Source of the DNA: Hypoxylon rubiginosum
Lineage: Eukaryota; Ascomycota; Sordariomycetes; Xylariales; Hypoxylaceae
Direction of reading: 5' to 3'
Length of the DNA stretch: 64,000 bases
Assembly (NCBI GenBank): GCA_902806565.1
Contig: CADCXA010000006.1
Location: 1,178,001 to 1,242,000, forward strand
The notes under the pieces were generated by a model, which had not been told where the DNA came from, searched no databases, and was given only the letters and a program-made list of their open reading frames with translations. Position numbers and translations under genes: made by a program. Positions 20,275 through 27,285 of this stretch are shown in pieces (the stretch's first letter is position 1; each line of letters opens with the position of its first letter).

Positions 20275-20283
20275 CTTTGAGAC
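20275..20283. repeat. target-site duplication, left copy
   Basis: CTTTGAGAC, identical to the nine bases directly after the right terminal repeat. Nine bases is the usual duplication length of Mutator-like elements. Confidence 0.9.
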
Positions 20284-20496
20284 GGGGATACAGCTCAGCC
20301 GACCATTGACCCGCTTTGGACCTGACCATAGCCCCATTTATTTGTATGTGGCGGGGTGCCGACCACTGACCATTGGGATCTGACCTGACCATGGCCCCAT
20401 GGTCAATCTTGGCATTTATTAATAGAGTACTCAATAACCCCTCCATATCCAATTAACCACTTTCACTCTAGTGGCTCCATTTATATAAGCCAATTA
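20284..20496 (+). repeat. left terminal inverted repeat (213 bp)
   Basis: Matches the reverse complement of 27064-27276 without gaps. I see six mismatches, four of them clustered at 20330-20340. It contains repeated TGACCAT/TGACC words in the outer 120 bp and one AGTACT unit at 20426. Confidence 0.92.
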
Positions 20497-20513
20497 CGTA
20501 GCTAGGTGAGCAT

Positions 20514-20567
20514 TTATTAGAATATCACCACCACAAATCTATTAGAATACCACCACCACATATCACG
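20514..20567 (+). repeat. subterminal direct duplication in the transposon
   Basis: TATTAGAATAYCACCACCACA occurs twice about 24 bp apart, just inside the left terminal repeat. It has no counterpart that I noticed at the right end. Confidence 0.7.
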
Positions 20568-20709
20568 AAATTTACCTCCTTTTACCTACCTACTTAACAA
20601 AACGTTTTGCTTATATCGATCTGCTTGATGAGCACTCATCGACTACTTATTAGGCTTTGCGGTGAGTTCACCGATGGCAGGACCAAGTAAGATGTAGTGA
20701 TGGGTACGA

Positions 20710-20742
20710 TTGACCGCCGACTTGACCGCCGATTTGACCGCC
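20710..20742 (+). promoter_or_regulatory. three 12-bp repeats upstream of the transposase
   Basis: TTGACCGCC occurs at 20710, 20722 and 20734 with a period of exactly 12 bp (TTGACCGCCGAY). It lies 120-150 bp before the transposase start codon. Position and periodicity suggest a protein-binding or promoter element. The TGACC core echoes words in the terminal repeats. Confidence 0.55.
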
Positions 20743-20861
20743 AAAGCGCAGGAGTTTACTATGGAATAGTTAATGAGTACTCAATAAGCAATCAATTATT
20801 AAACCAGCGTGAGTCCTCACATTTACCTATACATCGCGCTCATCAATACGAGAATCTAACA

Positions 20862-23800
20862 ATGGCTCAACCCCACCAGATTATTCGACCTAACTATGCT
20901 GAAGACATACCAGATGGTAAGCTTCAACTTAGATACTGGCGACGAGTTGAGGTATACTCATTAATTGTTTATAGATTATCGAGTTGAGGCACCTGCTCTC
21001 CCAAAACCATGGACAGATGCCTTACTCGATCTCACGACTCGGGCTGATATTGGTCGGCGTGAGTACTCGATGACTAACTCAACAACTATTCGGAATCAAG
21101 CAATGCCGACGAATAGTGAGGATATGAACAACCCGATAGGGCACCCCGATTCCATCGAGCTCTCCTTAAGCACTCCGCGATTAGTGTCAAGTGGTAGACG
21201 ATTAATTGACGGTACATTGGTGCATCAAAATACTGCCACCTACGTTCGTCACGTTTATGCAGTTTCAACGCTTCCGGCCTATCCAAGGACTGACCCAGAT
21301 GGAGTGCTTTATATATGCCCTATTGGAGTACTCAATGAAGCCGTTCAAAATGCGCCCTGGGAGGACGTAAGTGATCCTGTATAGTGGTTAAGAAGTACTC
21401 ATTGAGTACTCAGCTAATTTCCGTCTTCTAGATGCAATATTCGACATACCAGAAACACCCAGCGAAGGCTGGGACAACCGACCTATTAAACGATGCCGCC
21501 GTGATACGTTATACACGTCAATGTAGTGGTATTAAGATCTGTCCACATCTACACCCAAACATTCGCGATCTCCATCACACACGTATCCCCGAAGATGACT
21601 CCTTTTGGAGTATGCCTGCGAGGATTAATCGAGCACGCGAGAAGCACTCGGCTTTGTTCGAGGCAGTTGCCTTTGCACGGGGAGCACTCAAAGCTTTCGA
21701 TGTGCCTAAGCCATGTCACAGGACCTTGAAGCCTGAATTCTTTCCTGGTGACAGGTGGAATGAAATGACAATGCAAGGGTATGTCGAGTGTGTGTTGGGT
21801 CACGGGCAAATGGCGGGCGACAATGTAAGTACTCGCAAACTACCTATTGAGTACTTATTAACCTCTTCACTAGTATCCTGACGGATCGCCGAGGAAATTC
21901 TTGCAATGCGCGAATCATGGGATGGAAGAGTATGCGCACTTTTCTCGACATGTCCCTGCCCGTTTAATGGAACACTGGACTGTGATTAAGCGCATAGTTG
22001 AGCAATGGGACTGGGAGGATATCATCCAAGATAATCCCGAACTTCGAGAGTTTGCTCGGGATATGGGTGAGTATTGTGGGACAATTGCTGGGACGTCTGG
22101 GAGGGGTAAACTGTGCAGTAAGTTTAGGGAGTACTTCATGAGTACTCTTTAAGGACTCACTAACATCTCGTCAGACACATTTCACACCGTTGATACTCCT
22201 CCGCAACTAATACCTCTCAAATGTGATGTGATATTCAAATGGCATATCCCATGCGACCGCAAGAAATACCCATGGTTTTTTCTTTCGATCCATGGTGAGC
22301 ATAAACACCCCCCGCCCACTCCAAATCGTGAACCTAAGAGCTTGGTACGGCGGTTTATTCAGTATATTCGCAAGTCGGGCGATCGTGATGGATCCCTCGG
22401 TAGGTCACGAAGCTCTAAACAACTACTTTTTGAGTACATATTAATTGTATTAGGGACTTTTCTCAGGAGCGAGGCGTGTCAGGAGTTCCTGAGAGAGTTT
22501 AATAGTCAAACGTTCGCCGAGATTCACCCCTATTTTACTAACGATGATGCCTTACGTCGTATCATTCGCCAGGAACGGGCTATACATTATCCTCTAGGTT
22601 CTTCGCGCCTCGCCTTGCGGTATGAATGGGAATTGAATCACAAGGACAGCGAAAACAAGGTAAGTACTCGATGAACTCTCGGTTAGTACTCTATTGCTAA
22701 GTTGATTATTTGCTCCGCAGTATATTCAATTCTTCCACGATGATAACACGAATTTCATGGTTATTTTGTTCTATGTCGAGCAACTTTTACTCTTGTTTCA
22801 GACTCCAGATATCTCACTCCAAGTAGATATGAATTTCAAGCACCTCATAGGTGGCCAGTTCGAGATAATTTGGGCTTTTTACGATGAAGTATCGCGAAGA
22901 TGTGAGTTCCCCATTTGCCCCTCCACGAGTAGTCTCTGAGTACTCAATGAGTACTTATCAAAGATTAACCGTTCTATAGCCGAGGTAACACTCCGAGTAA
23001 TCACAAACTCGCAGAGCCCTGATATGTACTTCTTCATGTTTCAGAATGTCTTTTCAACTGTTCACTCTGCCACTGGTAGAGAGATTCAATTAAAGCATCT
23101 CCACGGAACTGGTATTCTCGGGTTTACGTTCGATATGGAATGGGGCATTTTTCAAGGTCAGTTGCGACTAGCTACTCTATAAGTACTCATTGAGTACTTA
23201 ATAAGTACTAATTGTATATAGCATGGGGACACTTCGTATCGCAGCATCTGGACCCAGAACGCCGTGGATGGCTCTATCATCACAAACGCTCCGTTCGTTT
23301 CTGCAGAGTTCATTACGAGAGAAATGTGAGAAAGCTGCTAGGGGAGTATACGCCGAGATTCCAGAATTCCATATACGATATCCTCATCCACTTACCTGAA
23401 GCCAAGACGGAGTCTGATTATCACGGTACTTGCGAAAAGATAATTTGTGAGTACTCATAGAGTTCTTAATAAGTACTAAGCATACACTAATACTACTTCA
23501 GCTGAGGACACATTAACCAGTAACTACCCTGGGATAATCCCCTGGGTTAAACATAAGAGAATTCCTGAAATCGCATCAGGGCTCGCGAGGTGTTGTTCCG
23601 ATATCGACGAAGCCGACTGGCATGCGATGTCTAGAAGTACGAACGCGGTAGAATCGCTCCATCATGCTAGTTATCATGCTAGTGGCAGGTATAAGCCGGT
23701 ATTTGTAGTTGTTCAGGTTAACGCCGAATATGATGCTCGTCGTATCCAACAAGCCGATATATATCAGCGGTACGGCATTCGGTACGGTCAAAGGAATCAT

Positions 23801-24328
23801 TCATTGGATACACGATGGAGCAATGCCATTAAAGCGCAAAGTAAGTGCCCCTAATTTTGATGGAATACTCCATAAGTATTGAATAAGTACTTGCAGAGTA
23901 CTAATTTGCAGTACAGTGAAAAGAACTACCCGTCAGCGACAATCAAGTGACGAACGAAAAGCCAGGAAGCAAATAATTAGATCCTCGCCGCTTTCCGATG
24001 CCTCTGGGAGTACTCAACGATCCCTTAGTGTCCCGAGGACGCCCACTCCACGTCGAACATTGAGTCCTGTCCATAGCACGCCTGGGTCCGGGCGTAGAGG
24101 AGGTCGAAGTCGCAGGTAAGTTATTATGAGTACTTAATGAGTACTCGAAGAGTATATATCGAGCACTTACTGATACCTCTCAGTTCCATGGCAAGAGACG
24201 CGACAAGCAATGCCTATGATGAAGTCCTTGCTCGTCAAGAGCGGGAGCTTGAGCTTGAGGAGAGGAGACTGCGGCTGGATCAGGCTAGGTATGATCTTGA
24301 ACAGAGACGGAGGGCGGAGGGTATTTGA
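20862..24328 (+). CDS. Mutator-like transposase candidate (944 aa, 11 exons)
   Basis: Exons: 20862-20916, 20975-21366, 21432-21824, 21874-22117, 22175-22659, 22721-22901, 22980-23156, 23222-23446, 23502-23840, 23917-24115 and 24184-24328. The total of 2,835 nt closes in phase. A further in-frame intron from 21059 (GTGAGTACTC donor) is possible. Such enzymes cut and paste the element by DDE catalysis. A Cys/His cluster (C378, C388, H401, H404, H406; CDVIFKWHIPC and HGEHKHPPP) precedes the core. Candidate catalytic residues are D559 (QVDMNFKHL), D635 (FTFDMEWG) and E768 (STNAVESLHH). The NAVES and DMxFK contexts are typical of fungal Mutator-like proteins as I remember them. A basic Ser/Pro/Arg-rich linker and a short Glu/Arg coiled coil (ERELELEERRLRLDQ) end the protein. 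Assignment to this superfamily is inference; intactness is directly visible. Confidence 0.85.
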
Positions 24329-24812
24329 CTATTTTTTGTTATAGAATACTCATTAACTACTCATAGAGTACTCTATGAGTACTTAACGAGTATTTAGTTA
24401 TAATGTATTGGATGCTTTATTCCGTGAACTTCCATTTTGCAAATAGGCATAGAAGTAATTAACTATATATGTTGAATTTGGAATTTTATTGCAATCCCTT
24501 TTATTGCTTAATTATTATGGTAATTCAATTGTAAATGCGTCAGCAAAGATAAATGAGAGTGCTTCATATGGAAACTGGTTTTATATTCCATGAGTACTCA
24601 TCAAGTACTCATCAAGTACTCGAAAGGTATTGGTCAAATTAGACTATCATAGCAATGGGTATCGTTGAACGCGTTAAAACTGCCCTACTACCTGGATATC
24701 GTCCGTTTACTCGTAATGAAAAGAACGCCACATAAACACTTTTAAGTACTTATTGAATACTCCATGATTAGCACATGGAGCACTCAAAACCCACTCTCCC
24801 TATTCTAGCCAC
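24329..24812. other. spacer between the convergent transposon genes
   Basis: About 480 bp of AT-rich 3' flanking DNA. It holds two dense 11-bp-unit clusters: 24347-24400, around the first stop codon's downstream region, and 24593-24620, with three exact units in a row. A single unit lies at 24745. No reading frame of note. Confidence 0.75.
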
Positions 24813-26872
24813 TTATACGTTATCCTGAAGCTGTCGCGCGGCTGCATCGTCATCGTTAGCTCCCTCCGGCGTCGTGAAACACTCGGTGGTTTCCCGTGAA
24901 GCATTTGATAAGGACTCTTCAAGTTCTCTCTTAGTAGCAGAACGAGTTTTCCTCGGCTCAGTGGACAACGTTTTTTTCTCTACACGTCTTATTTTCATTG
25001 GGCGCGTATCGGGCTCCTGTTGTTTTTCTCCATTTAACTCGTTATTCTCGTGAGTCTCGCGATTCTCCTGCTCGTTTAGGCGCTCCTGCTCTTGTTGTAA
25101 GCGCTCTTGTTCTTGCTGTTGCCGCAGGCGCTCCTGCTCTTGTTGTAAGCGCTCTTGTTCTTGCTGTTGCCGCAGGCGCTCCTGCTCTTCTTGTTGTAAG
25201 CGCTCCTGCTCTTCTTGTTGTAAGCGCTCCTGCTCTTCTCGTTGCAGGCGTTCGTTCTCTTCTCGTTGCAGGCGTTCGTTCTCTTCTCGTTGCAGGCGTT
25301 CGTGCTCTTCTCGCTGCAGACGTTCTTGATCTTCTTGTTGCAGGCGAGTTTGTTCCTCTCGCTGCAGGCGTTCCTGCTCTTGCTGCTGCTGCTGCAGGCG
25401 CTCTTGTTCCTGCTGCTCCTGCTGCAGCAGATACTCTCGTTCTTGCTGCAGCAGGCGTTCCTGCTCCTGCTGCTGCTGCAGGCGCTCTTGTTCCTGCTGC
25501 TGGAACTCTCGTTCCTGCTGCAGCAGGGGATCATCCTCAAATAGGAACTCTTGATTTACCTCATCTTGAAGCTCAGGATGGGATATCATCTCTTGGAAGG
25601 ATTGCAGCTGCATCATTCCATGACGTTCAGTCTCTGCTTCCGTAGCTTGCTGACGTTCCGCGGCCTCGATATCCGCAATAGAGTCAAAAATCCGGGCAGA
25701 ACCATCAGACAGCAGGACAGTCTTGCTGCCAGCCCGTTGGTGACCCTGTTGAGTACTCATTGAGACACTCATTGAGGGCTCTCTTGGAAGAGTTGGCTGG
25801 TGCTCGGGTATAGATTTACTCTCCGCATCCTTGCTATCGATGGTATGGGCATGATTTGAATCGTCGTCGCTTACGTCGGTTTCATCGGGGCGGGCACGTC
25901 TCTCTCGCCTCGTCTCTAAGAACTGCATCCAAAGATGGCAGTCCGGTTTGCGTACCTCTGGACAAGCTAAACACCAGTTAGTTATTCATTGAGTACTTAT
26001 CGAGTGATCACTTACAACTCCTTCCGGCCTCGATACAGCCCTCGCAGGCCTTTTTCTTTTGTCCCGCCAGAAGCTTCATAGATTTCAGGTTAGGCTATAA
26101 TAGATTAGCTCAATTTGTACTCGAAAAGTCCTTGATATATCTTACATGAGCTGCGCAGTTTTTGCGAGCCTTCGTGAAAGGAACTGACTTGAGATCCTTC
26201 TGCTTTGGGGCTTGGAGAGGCCGCGTATCAGGCCGGAATGGTGTCTTTCCCACCGAACTAGCCGCGGTGTTCGGGTTGAACTCGTCGATGTCCTTCTTCA
26301 CCGAGTCCCAGTATGCTATATTGGTTCATTAGCTGATACGAGTTCTATACTGCTCGATGAGTACTTACTAATTAATACAGCATGATCATGCAGTGTCAAT
26401 CCGCCATTGCGATTCTTCGCCAGTCGAATCTCCACATCATTCCCGTCGACGATGACACGATGTGACTCAACATGGCGCTTAAGGTTACTCCAATGTAATA
26501 TCTTGTCCTGTTCAAAGTTAATGAGCACTTATTGAGTACCCCATAAGTGTTCATATATGACTCACCGTGCGATAGCATAACTGAATATCAGCGTCGGTGT
26601 TGTGATTCATGTTGAATCGACAGAAGCATTCACCATTAGGAATAACGACTTGATCCGCACCCTGATATATAATGAGTACTCATCGAGTTATCAAAAAGAA
26701 ATATAGAACTTACGATCATATCGAATGGCGATACATTATCTGGTCGTGTTTCGTGAGCCTGATACCACTTGTATCCTTCCTATAAAACATAATGAGTACT
26801 CATATAGTACTTATGAAATGAATAAAAACTTACAGATTTGTGTTTGTAGGATGTAGAAGGTAATGGTGCCAT
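24813..26872 (-). CDS. transposon accessory protein: Cys/His-rich plus coiled coil (580 aa)
   Basis: Seven exons: 26872-26834, 26779-26714, 26661-26566, 26507-26369, 26315-26146, 26094-26016 and 25966-24813, 1,743 nt in phase. N-terminal residues 1-190 hold conserved-looking Cys/His groups: ECFCRF, then LCYRTDKILHWSNLKRHVESH (zinc-finger-like spacing), KNCAAH, and CEGC followed by SSCPEVRKPDCHLW. The middle is acidic and Ser/Thr-rich. About residues 320-490 are a long Gln/Glu/Arg/Leu coiled coil built from QERLQQE-type repeats. The C-terminus has basic clusters (KIRRVEKK) fit for nuclear import. It is probably DNA-binding and oligomeric, perhaps binding the element's own repeats. Its placement matches mudrB of MuDR, but I see no sequence kinship. 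Family not recognised. Confidence 0.82.
25076..25545 (-). repeat. tandem coding repeats for the Gln/Glu coiled coil
   Basis: Head-to-tail units of about 24-27 bp (CGCTCCTGCTCTTCTTGTTG and variants on the plus strand) encode QERLQQE/QERLQRE heptad-like repeats. Near-identical adjacent copies suggest recent slippage or unequal exchange, so the copy number may vary between strains. Confidence 0.85.
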
Positions 26873-27063
26873 ATTAGTGAATAGGGCTGTGTAACTTTAG
26901 TAATTACCCAATAGAATAAATTTTATATTAAATGCTCAATGAGTACTTATTGAGTAGTTAGTCAAATTATGGTAAAAGTATGTGTAAAGGAAAGTTTGGT
27001 ATCATTTTAATTTGGGCATAGCAATTACTTTTATTGACTATTGGTCTATGCTTTTCTTGTGTA
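26873..27063 (-). promoter_or_regulatory. upstream region of the accessory gene
   Basis: AT-rich 190 bp between the start codon and the right terminal repeat, with 11-bp units at 26942 and a degenerate neighbour (TTGAGTAG) at 26950. It probably holds the core promoter; no clear TATA assignment was made. Confidence 0.45.
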
Positions 27064-27276
27064 TAATTGGCTTATATAAATGGAGCCACTAGAGTGAAAG
27101 TGGTTAATAGGATATGGAGGGGTTATTGAGTACTCTATTAATAAATGCCAAGACTGACCATGGGGCCATGGTCAGGTCAGATCCCAATGGTCAGTGGTCG
27201 GCACCCCGCCACATACAAATAAGCGGGTCAATGGTCAGGTCCAAAGCGGGTCAATGGTCGGCTGAGCTGTATCCCC
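27064..27276 (-). repeat. right terminal inverted repeat (213 bp)
   Basis: Inverted copy of 20284-20496, ending GAGCTGTATCCCC. Near 27220-27235 it differs from the left copy in a way that duplicates the neighbouring TTGACCCGCTT word. This suggests local gene conversion or slippage. Confidence 0.92.
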
Positions 27277-27285
27277 CTTTGAGAC
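27277..27285. repeat. target-site duplication, right copy
   Basis: CTTTGAGAC, identical to 20275-20283. Confidence 0.9.

What the first reader, a model, noticed from the sequence alone, without database searches (positions are those of the whole stretch)
20426..27134. Helically phased 11-bp repeat arrays in nearly every intron of both transposon genes
I count 37 exact AGTACT hexamers in the 7-kb element. All ten transposase introns and all six accessory-gene introns carry the unit AGTACTYAWTR, 13 of the 16 with an exact hexamer and the rest with a degenerate form. Only three copies fall in predicted exons. Pairs are 11 bp apart (21394/21405, 22130/22141, 22939/22950, 23182/23193/23204, 23886/23897, 24129/24140, 24367/24378, 24593/24604/24615, 26795/26806) or 22 bp apart with a decayed unit between. 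One-turn spacing means sites on the same DNA face, as for cooperative protein binding. They may be internal binding sites for the transposase or accessory protein (compare subterminal motifs of En/Spm), a spreading repeat, or an RNA-level signal. I know of no described element with such intron-borne arrays.
Basis: seen in the sequence. Interest (0 to 1): 0.93.

Follow-up and report, generated by a model that had tools for sequence, protein, structure and literature searches.

The report
Transposon's protein-binding arrays hidden in introns
A fungal jumping gene carries short, evenly spaced, mirror-image DNA repeats in its introns and other non-coding parts, most likely docking sites for its own helper protein, much like an arrangement described in plant transposons that fight silencing.

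Summary
The 6,993-bp fungal element (window 20284-27276; 213-bp inverted repeats, 8-9-bp target duplications) has 38 AGTACT hexamers, 33 of them non-coding; 13 of 17 predicted introns have one exactly, the other four a decayed unit. The unit is a palindrome, TGAGTACTCA, repeated every 11 bp (29 pairs against 0.09 in shuffles). Genome-wide, 88 of 91 AGTACT-N5-AGTACT pairs lie in this family; 101.9 kb of host sequence has no TGAGTACTCA site with up to one mismatch, the element 26.

The key new evidence is gene-less ~1-kb derivatives. Inside the ~120-bp ends, the one tested matches the full element only through the 11-bp arrays; one array differs by exactly one unit between copies. The arrays are therefore probably DNA-level cis sites, not splicing signals. 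They cover the whole element: 5 of 48 sites lie in the outer 350 bp.

Best reading: docking arrays for the element's zinc-finger/coiled-coil accessory protein, working like the VANC-binding arrays of Arabidopsis VANDAL21 (introns, intergenic, terminal regions). Function is untested; copies destroyed by RIP mutation show no protection by the arrays.

The parts
20284..27276 (.). Whole autonomous element, 6,993 bp
   Evidence: 213-nt inverted repeats 97% complementary; seven full copies in the genome; TSD CTTTGAGAC on both sides
20284..20496 (+). Left terminal inverted repeat, containing one motif at 20426
27064..27276 (-). Right terminal inverted repeat, containing one motif at 27129
20275..20283 (.). 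Target-site duplication CTTTGAGAC (left copy)
27277..27285 (.). Target-site duplication CTTTGAGAC (right copy)
20862..24328 (+). Transposase gene, 12 exons, 932 aa; 11 introns at 20917-20974, 21367-21431, 21825-21873, 22118-22174, 22400-22453, 22660-22720, 22902-22979, 23157-23221, 23447-23501, 23841-23898 (uncertain acceptor), 24116-24183
   Evidence: open spliced frame; 51% identity to P0001 of Hypoxylon sp. FL0890; 10 of 11 junctions align with no gap or one gap, intron 10 does not
24813..26872 (-). Accessory gene, 7 exons, 580 aa: C2H2-like finger, second Cys cluster, long Q/E repeat; introns 26780-26833, 26662-26713, 26508-26565, 26316-26368, 26095-26145, 25967-26015
   Evidence: 5 of 6 junctions without gap; homologue P0003 51%; conserved Cys/His
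20629..20649 (.). two units at 11 bp (at most 3 mismatches), 5' region
20774..20794 (.). two units at 11 bp, 5' region; exact hexamer at 20776
20951..20960 (.). decayed unit (3 mismatches), intron 1
21062..21067 (.). exact hexamer in exon 2
21327..21332 (.). exact hexamer in exon 2
21392..21412 (.). 11-bp array, two units, intron 2
21826..21857 (.). 22-bp-spaced pair, intron 3
22128..22159 (.). 11-bp array, three units, intron 4
22431..22440 (.). decayed unit, intron 5
22661..22692 (.). 22-bp-spaced pair, intron 6
22926..22957 (.). 11-bp array, three units, intron 7
23180..23211 (.). 11-bp array, three units, intron 8
23448..23479 (.). 11-bp array with decayed middle unit, intron 9
23862..23904 (.). 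11-bp array, four units, intron 10; the last one straddles the predicted acceptor
24009..24014 (.). exact hexamer in exon 11
24127..24147 (.). 11-bp array, two units, intron 11
24343..24396 (.). 11-bp array, five units, downstream of the transposase stop codon
24591..24622 (.). 11-bp array, three units, between the convergent genes
24743..24763 (.). two units at 11 bp between the genes
25752..25757 (.). exact hexamer inside the accessory coding exon
25990..26010 (.). two units at 11 bp, accessory intron 6
26114..26123 (.). decayed unit (3 mismatches), accessory intron 5
26358..26367 (.). single unit, accessory intron 4
26522..26553 (.). three decayed units at 11 bp, accessory intron 3
26673..26693 (.). 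two units at 11 bp, accessory intron 2
26793..26813 (.). 11-bp array, two units, accessory intron 1
26929..26960 (.). three units at 11 bp upstream of the accessory gene

Best explanation
The arrays are DNA-level docking sites. The site is a 10-bp palindrome, TGAGTACTCA, repeated about every helical turn (11 bp), so a dimeric or multimeric protein can bind cooperatively on one face of the DNA. The binder is most likely the accessory protein, which has a C2H2-like finger, a second cysteine cluster and a long Q/E repeat that looks like a coiled coil. Sites are spread over the non-coding part of the element; introns are non-coding space cut out of the mRNA, so an element packed with two genes can keep docking arrays along its body without spoiling its proteins. 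By analogy with VANC/VANDAL21, the bound protein most likely keeps the element in an open, expressed state; a transposition role is the main alternative. Shown: the motif, palindrome, phasing, element-specificity, presence in gene-less derivatives, a one-unit length difference. Inferred: that a protein binds, that it is the accessory protein, and the anti-silencing outcome.
For: Palindromic consensus and phasing: 29 pairs at 11 bp vs 0.09 expected. Family-specific: 88 of 91 genomic 11-bp pairs; 0 sites with at most 1 mismatch in 101,855 bp of host sequence vs 26 in the element. Gene-less ~1-kb derivatives: in the one compared (C37), all BLAST matches of the inner region to the element vanish when the arrays are masked; C21 and C37 copies differ by exactly 11 bp in the main array. 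Body-wide placement: 29 clusters, median spacing 216 bp. Accessory protein with Cys/His pattern FC..LC..H..NLxRHVxSHR conserved in three homologues. Precedent with the same layout: VANC21 (PMC5735166, PMC10398659; passages seen).
Against: No binding data. No Pfam family reaches its cut-off for the accessory protein or its homologues; the model of homologue P0003 is unusable (mean pLDDT 39). Three full-length copies with the same arrays were destroyed by RIP, with CpA inside sites mutated at 98%, so the arrays give no visible protection in cis there. Intron density (23 per 985 bp) exceeds other non-coding (8 per 1,040 bp; p=0.006), which a pure 'any non-coding space' model does not predict. Exons still hold 4 hexamers plus one at an edge.
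Confidence: 0.55

Rival explanations
1. Cis sites for transposition: the transposase or accessory protein binds the arrays to bring the ends together, as TnpA does on subterminal repeats of En/Spm.
For: Sites occur in both inverted repeats and in mobile gene-less derivatives, where a three-unit array lies about 160-190 bp from the right end and a six-unit array about 330-400 bp from it.
Against: Only 5 of 48 sites lie within 350 bp of an end; the rest cover the body. The left half of the derivatives has only isolated sites at 3 mismatches, no array.
Confidence: 0.25
2. Spreading minisatellite: an 11-bp unit multiplies by slippage and gene conversion wherever coding sequence does not forbid it, with no function.
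For: One-unit length difference between derivative copies; sites rarer in exons, 5 in 4,542 bp (edge case included) vs 33 in 2,451 bp.
Against: The element holds many separate runs of 2-5 diverged units of the same palindrome rather than one long array; two otherwise unmatched inner sequences carry it; host DNA hardly does.
Confidence: 0.12
3. RNA-level signal: paired palindromes fold into hairpins or act as splice donor/branch-point enhancers.
For: GTRAGTACT fuses donor and motif in 4 of 17 introns (sequences); 5 of 17 introns, all in the transposase gene (5 of 11), fold better than shuffles with z below -2.
Against: None of the 6 accessory-gene introns has z below -2, and tandem palindromes give hairpins automatically; gene-less derivatives and intergenic DNA carry the longest arrays; adjacent units do not covary (p=1, only 10 usable pairs).
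Confidence: 0.05
4. Binding sites for a host transcription factor exploited by the element.
For: Palindromic site; sites upstream of both genes.
Against: Sites with at most one mismatch are absent from 101.9 kb of host DNA and 11-bp pairs are almost absent from the genome outside the family; body-wide placement is unlike a promoter.
Confidence: 0.08

Closest known systems
VANDAL21 (Hiun) MULE of Arabidopsis and its VANC21 anti-silencing protein (PMC5735166, PMC10398659; passages seen)
   Same: Multi-gene DNA transposon; short motif at high density in introns, intergenic and terminal non-coding parts; motifs in tandem repeats that change length; high motif density found only in the family
   Different: VANC21 motif is YAGTATTAY, not a palindrome, arrayed in one orientation; here a 10-bp palindrome at a fixed 11 bp with a unit, exact or decayed, in all 17 predicted introns; fungal host with RIP; no Pfam relation found for the accessory protein; binding and loss of silencing marks not shown here
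En/Spm (CACTA) TnpA and its subterminal repeats (passages of PMC2613891)
   Same: Element-encoded DNA-binding accessory protein and short repeated motif that non-autonomous copies must keep
   Different: There the repeats are subterminal (12-bp motif in En-1); here they run through the body and introns; TSD 8-9 bp, not 3
Mutator-like elements (MULEs), including fungal Hop/Mutyl groups (passages of PMC6446971)
   Same: TSD of 8-11 bp, long TIRs, extra ORFs in several MULEs
   Different: Transposase matches no Pfam model, and profile comparison with three of the host's own MULEs is not significant

Membership tests
MULE (Mutator-like) superfamily | target-site duplication of 8-11 bp | tested here: met
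   13 insertions read (7 full copies, 6 derivatives): 8 with an exact 9-bp repeat, 3 with an exact 8-bp repeat, 2 derivatives with 8 bp and one mismatch
MULE (Mutator-like) superfamily | long terminal inverted repeats | tested here: met
   213 nt, 97%
MULE (Mutator-like) superfamily | MULE transposase domain | tested here: not met
   no Pfam hit; PF10551 finds 6 matches in the genome, none in this family; hhalign P-value 0.12, probability 0.5% against three host MULEs. A D..D..C-H..E-like pattern is seen by eye only
VANDAL/VANC system | motif arrays in introns, intergenic and terminal non-coding DNA | tested here: met
VANDAL/VANC system | arrays vary by tandem unit gain or loss | tested here: met
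   one 11-bp gap between the C21 and C37 derivatives, a single event; the seven full copies do not vary in their arrays
VANDAL/VANC system | non-palindromic motif arrayed in one orientation (as for VANC21) | tested here: not met
   the unit here is a palindrome
VANDAL/VANC system | VANC-homologous protein | tested here: inconclusive
   accessory protein hits no Pfam family; no direct comparison with a VANC sequence was made
VANDAL/VANC system | encoded protein binds the motif and removes silencing marks | not testable with these tools
   needs EMSA/ChIP and methylation data
En/Spm TnpA-type subterminal sites | sites concentrated near both ends | tested here: not met
   5 of 48 sites in the outer 350 bp

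The most novel reading that the evidence does not exclude
This is a fungal, independently evolved, sequence-specific anti-silencing system: a transposon of an undescribed transposase group encodes a zinc-finger/coiled-coil protein that coats the element through 11-bp-phased palindromes placed in its introns, keeping it expressed (and perhaps less exposed to RIP before the sexual cycle) in a genome that otherwise destroys repeats.
Probability: 0.28. Interest if true: 0.85.

Novelty: new variant of a known kind. Interest (0 to 1): 0.62.

Why it matters
If the accessory protein binds these arrays, introns would be doing a second job as DNA docking space in a transposon, and the VANC/VANDAL strategy would have arisen separately in fungi. 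The genome holds seven near-identical intact copies beside colinear copies destroyed by RIP, which gives a natural setting to ask how a DNA transposon stays active in a RIP-competent fungus. The motif, its phasing and the gene-less derivatives make the idea directly testable with one purified protein.

Tried and rejected
Host-intron explanation: of 41 intron-like segments from host sequence, 0 have a site with at most 1 mismatch, 1 with at most 2, 13 with at most 3; of 11 in the element, 8, 9 and 10 (pattern-based, not annotated introns, from the window and the flanks of copies). RNA hairpins as the common cause: rejected for lack of consistency, 5 of 17 introns (an earlier notebook entry says 6, which was a miscount). 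Cis protection from RIP: tested on the three RIP-destroyed copies fetched; sites are mutated as much as elsewhere. RIP-destroyed copies as independent evolutionary evidence: rejected, they differ from the intact element almost only by C>T and G>A. The 11/12-bp periodicity of RIP homology recognition (PMC4858203, passages seen) may be a coincidence; arrays of 2-5 units are far shorter than the several hundred bp it integrates, so I do not build on it. A homologue of the accessory N-terminus at C50:151923 was examined in a 5-kb stretch (L065) for arrays of its own: no AGTACT, no 11-bp tandem repeat, only a chance-level transposase match (E 0.61). A second weak homologue (C53) was not read. Structure of the accessory homologue P0003: unusable. 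Search of viral contigs with the transposase alignment: no relative. Literature, in an open-access library: 'transposase binding sites' with introns, subterminal, tandem gave 0 papers; Mutator-like with fungal, RIP, introns, tandem repeats gave 2, neither opened; anti-silencing with fungi, at least 4 of 5 terms, gave 28 papers of which 8 were listed and none opened; Hypoxylon/MULE/RIP, at least 3 of 4 terms, gave 30 of which 10 were listed and none opened. The statement that this form was not found in print rests on these and only.
Full report
WHAT IS THERE. The window lies in a 48.27-Mb genome (contig C6). The nearest protein relatives are from the fungi Hypoxylon sp. FL0890 (transposase, 51%) and Rostrohypoxylon terebratum (accessory protein, 51%); the host itself was not identified. 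The element is 20284-27276, wider than the finding: 213-nt inverted repeats and a 9-bp duplication CTTTGAGAC. Seven full copies were found. Three are identical to the window copy over its whole length; the other three lack 48 bp around 25126-25141, in the Q/E-repeat part of the accessory gene, and are otherwise identical.

GENES. The transposase gene has 11 introns and yields 932 aa; the accessory gene on the other strand has 6 introns and yields 580 aa. Against the homologues, 15 of 17 junctions align with no gap or one gap; intron 10 and accessory intron 5 fall in gapped stretches. No RNA evidence was available. Neither protein matches Pfam.

THE MOTIF. 38 AGTACT occur in the element: 23 intron, 8 other non-coding, 2 inverted repeat, 4 exon, 1 across an exon/intron edge. 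Flanks of the 33 non-coding hexamers give TGAGTACTCA, a perfect palindrome; the two outer positions next to the hexamer are G or A in 31 and C or T in 31. With up to 3 mismatches there are 78 sites (shuffle mean 28) and 29 pairs at 11 bp (shuffle mean 0.09), 15 at 22 bp (0.09). The element has 17 runs of 2 to 5 units at exactly 11 bp. Of 17 introns, 13 have an exact hexamer, 14 a site with at most 2 mismatches, 17 one with at most 3; the last criterion is loose. Intron density exceeds other non-coding density (23 in 985 bp vs 8 in 1,040 bp; p=0.006), and all non-coding exceeds exon (33 in 2,451 vs 5 in 4,542, edge case counted as exon).

GENOME CONTROL. AGTACT occurs 8,121 times (0.17 per kb), the reversed control 11,802. 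The 11-bp pair occurs 91 times, control 2: 11 in each of the seven copies, 2 in the C21 derivative, 3 in each of two on C37, 3 in a derivative fragment at C19, 2 singletons elsewhere (C32, C34) and 1 not listed. The 22-bp pair occurs 44 times, control 6: 42 in the family, 2 elsewhere. In 101,855 bp of host sequence (window and flanks of copies) there are 0 sites with at most 1 mismatch and 21 with at most 2, no two of these within 25 bp.

GENE-LESS DERIVATIVES. About 1-kb elements share the terminal ~120 bp with the full element. Three undamaged ones (C21, and two on C37 with identical inner parts) and a fragment (C19) carry a main array of six units and, in the whole ones, a second of three, at up to 3 mismatches. 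Of the 11 loci fetched, nine are A+T-rich (10-28% G+C); exact AGTACT survives in 2 of those nine. I aligned three of them (C66, C15, C51) and they show the same array layout in decayed form; the others were not aligned. The two remaining loci are not clean derivatives: C10 has one 84-bp end match and no AGTACT nearby, C25 an end fragment beside a RIP-damaged copy. Inside the terminal repeats, the C37 derivative matches the full element only through the arrays: with the arrays masked, no match remains at E 0.01. C21 and C37 differ by exactly 11 bp in the main array. These elements carry none of the two genes, so the arrays work, if they work, as DNA.

RIP. The transposase search also found six loci (and one more piece on C19) with protein-level similarity and many TAA codons. 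I fetched three (C8, C18, C6). They are colinear with the intact element, 5-6% G+C, and differ from it almost only by C>T and G>A; transversions are 0.05-0.1% in exons outside the Q/E repeat. So RIP acts on this family, and the full-length copies that I read are either untouched or saturated; the short derivatives show more graded damage. Sites in the destroyed copies are mutated as fully as other sequence (98% of CpA). This counts against a simple protective effect of the arrays in cis. The intact copies may simply postdate the last sexual cycle.

WHO BINDS. The accessory protein has FC..LC..H..NLxRHVxSHR, conserved in P0003 and in a short host ORF at C50, and a second Cys cluster shared with P0003, followed by a long Q/E repeat. 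This looks like a DNA-binding, multimerising protein, but that is inference; the structure attempt failed. The transposase is a candidate too.

HOW IT LIKELY WORKS. Sites with at most 2 mismatches lie in 29 clusters with median spacing 216 bp across the body, 5 of 48 in the outer 350 bp; the largest gap, 992 bp, is the accessory coding exon. That layout suits a protein that coats or marks the whole element better than one that only pairs the ends. The published parallel is VANC21: it binds YAGTATTAY, in tandem repeats located in introns, intergenic and terminal non-coding parts of VANDAL21, and induces loss of silencing marks (PMC5735166 and PMC10398659; passages seen). I take the fungal element to work like that, with the binding step more secure than the silencing step. 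I do not file it as a VANDAL: the motif is a palindrome, and homology of the accessory protein to VANC is not shown. Filing under MULE is also incomplete: TSD and TIR fit, the transposase profile does not.

LIMITS. No divergent relative's DNA was available, so conservation of arrays at orthologous introns is untested; the derivatives are the only independent sequence context. Host introns were judged by pattern, not annotation. Binding, splicing and chromatin effects are unmeasured.

Noticed in passing
20284-27276 and copies on C3, C31, C37, C55, C56, C67; L045, L046, L047: Seven near-identical intact copies coexist with RIP-destroyed copies of the same element (three read, three more suggested by protein matches), with no intermediate among the full-length copies read.
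   Followed up: partly
25000-25560: Q/E-rich coding repeat of the accessory gene changes length: three other intact copies lack 48 bp here and the three RIP-damaged copies read lack 96 bp.
   Followed up: partly
L065 2409-2780 (G000:C50:151923): Short, open host ORF related to the N-terminal finger region of the accessory protein (about 40% identity), without AGTACT in the 5 kb read; possible solo or domesticated copy.
   Followed up: partly
20862-24328: Transposase with no Pfam family and only two homologues returned by a word-based search of 5.8 billion proteins; possibly an undescribed branch near MULEs.
   Followed up: partly
motif flanks throughout the element: Variable positions of the palindrome are almost all CpA/TpA and TpG/TpA alternatives, the change that RIP makes, though the element as a whole shows no RIP index shift against the rest of the window.
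   Followed up: no
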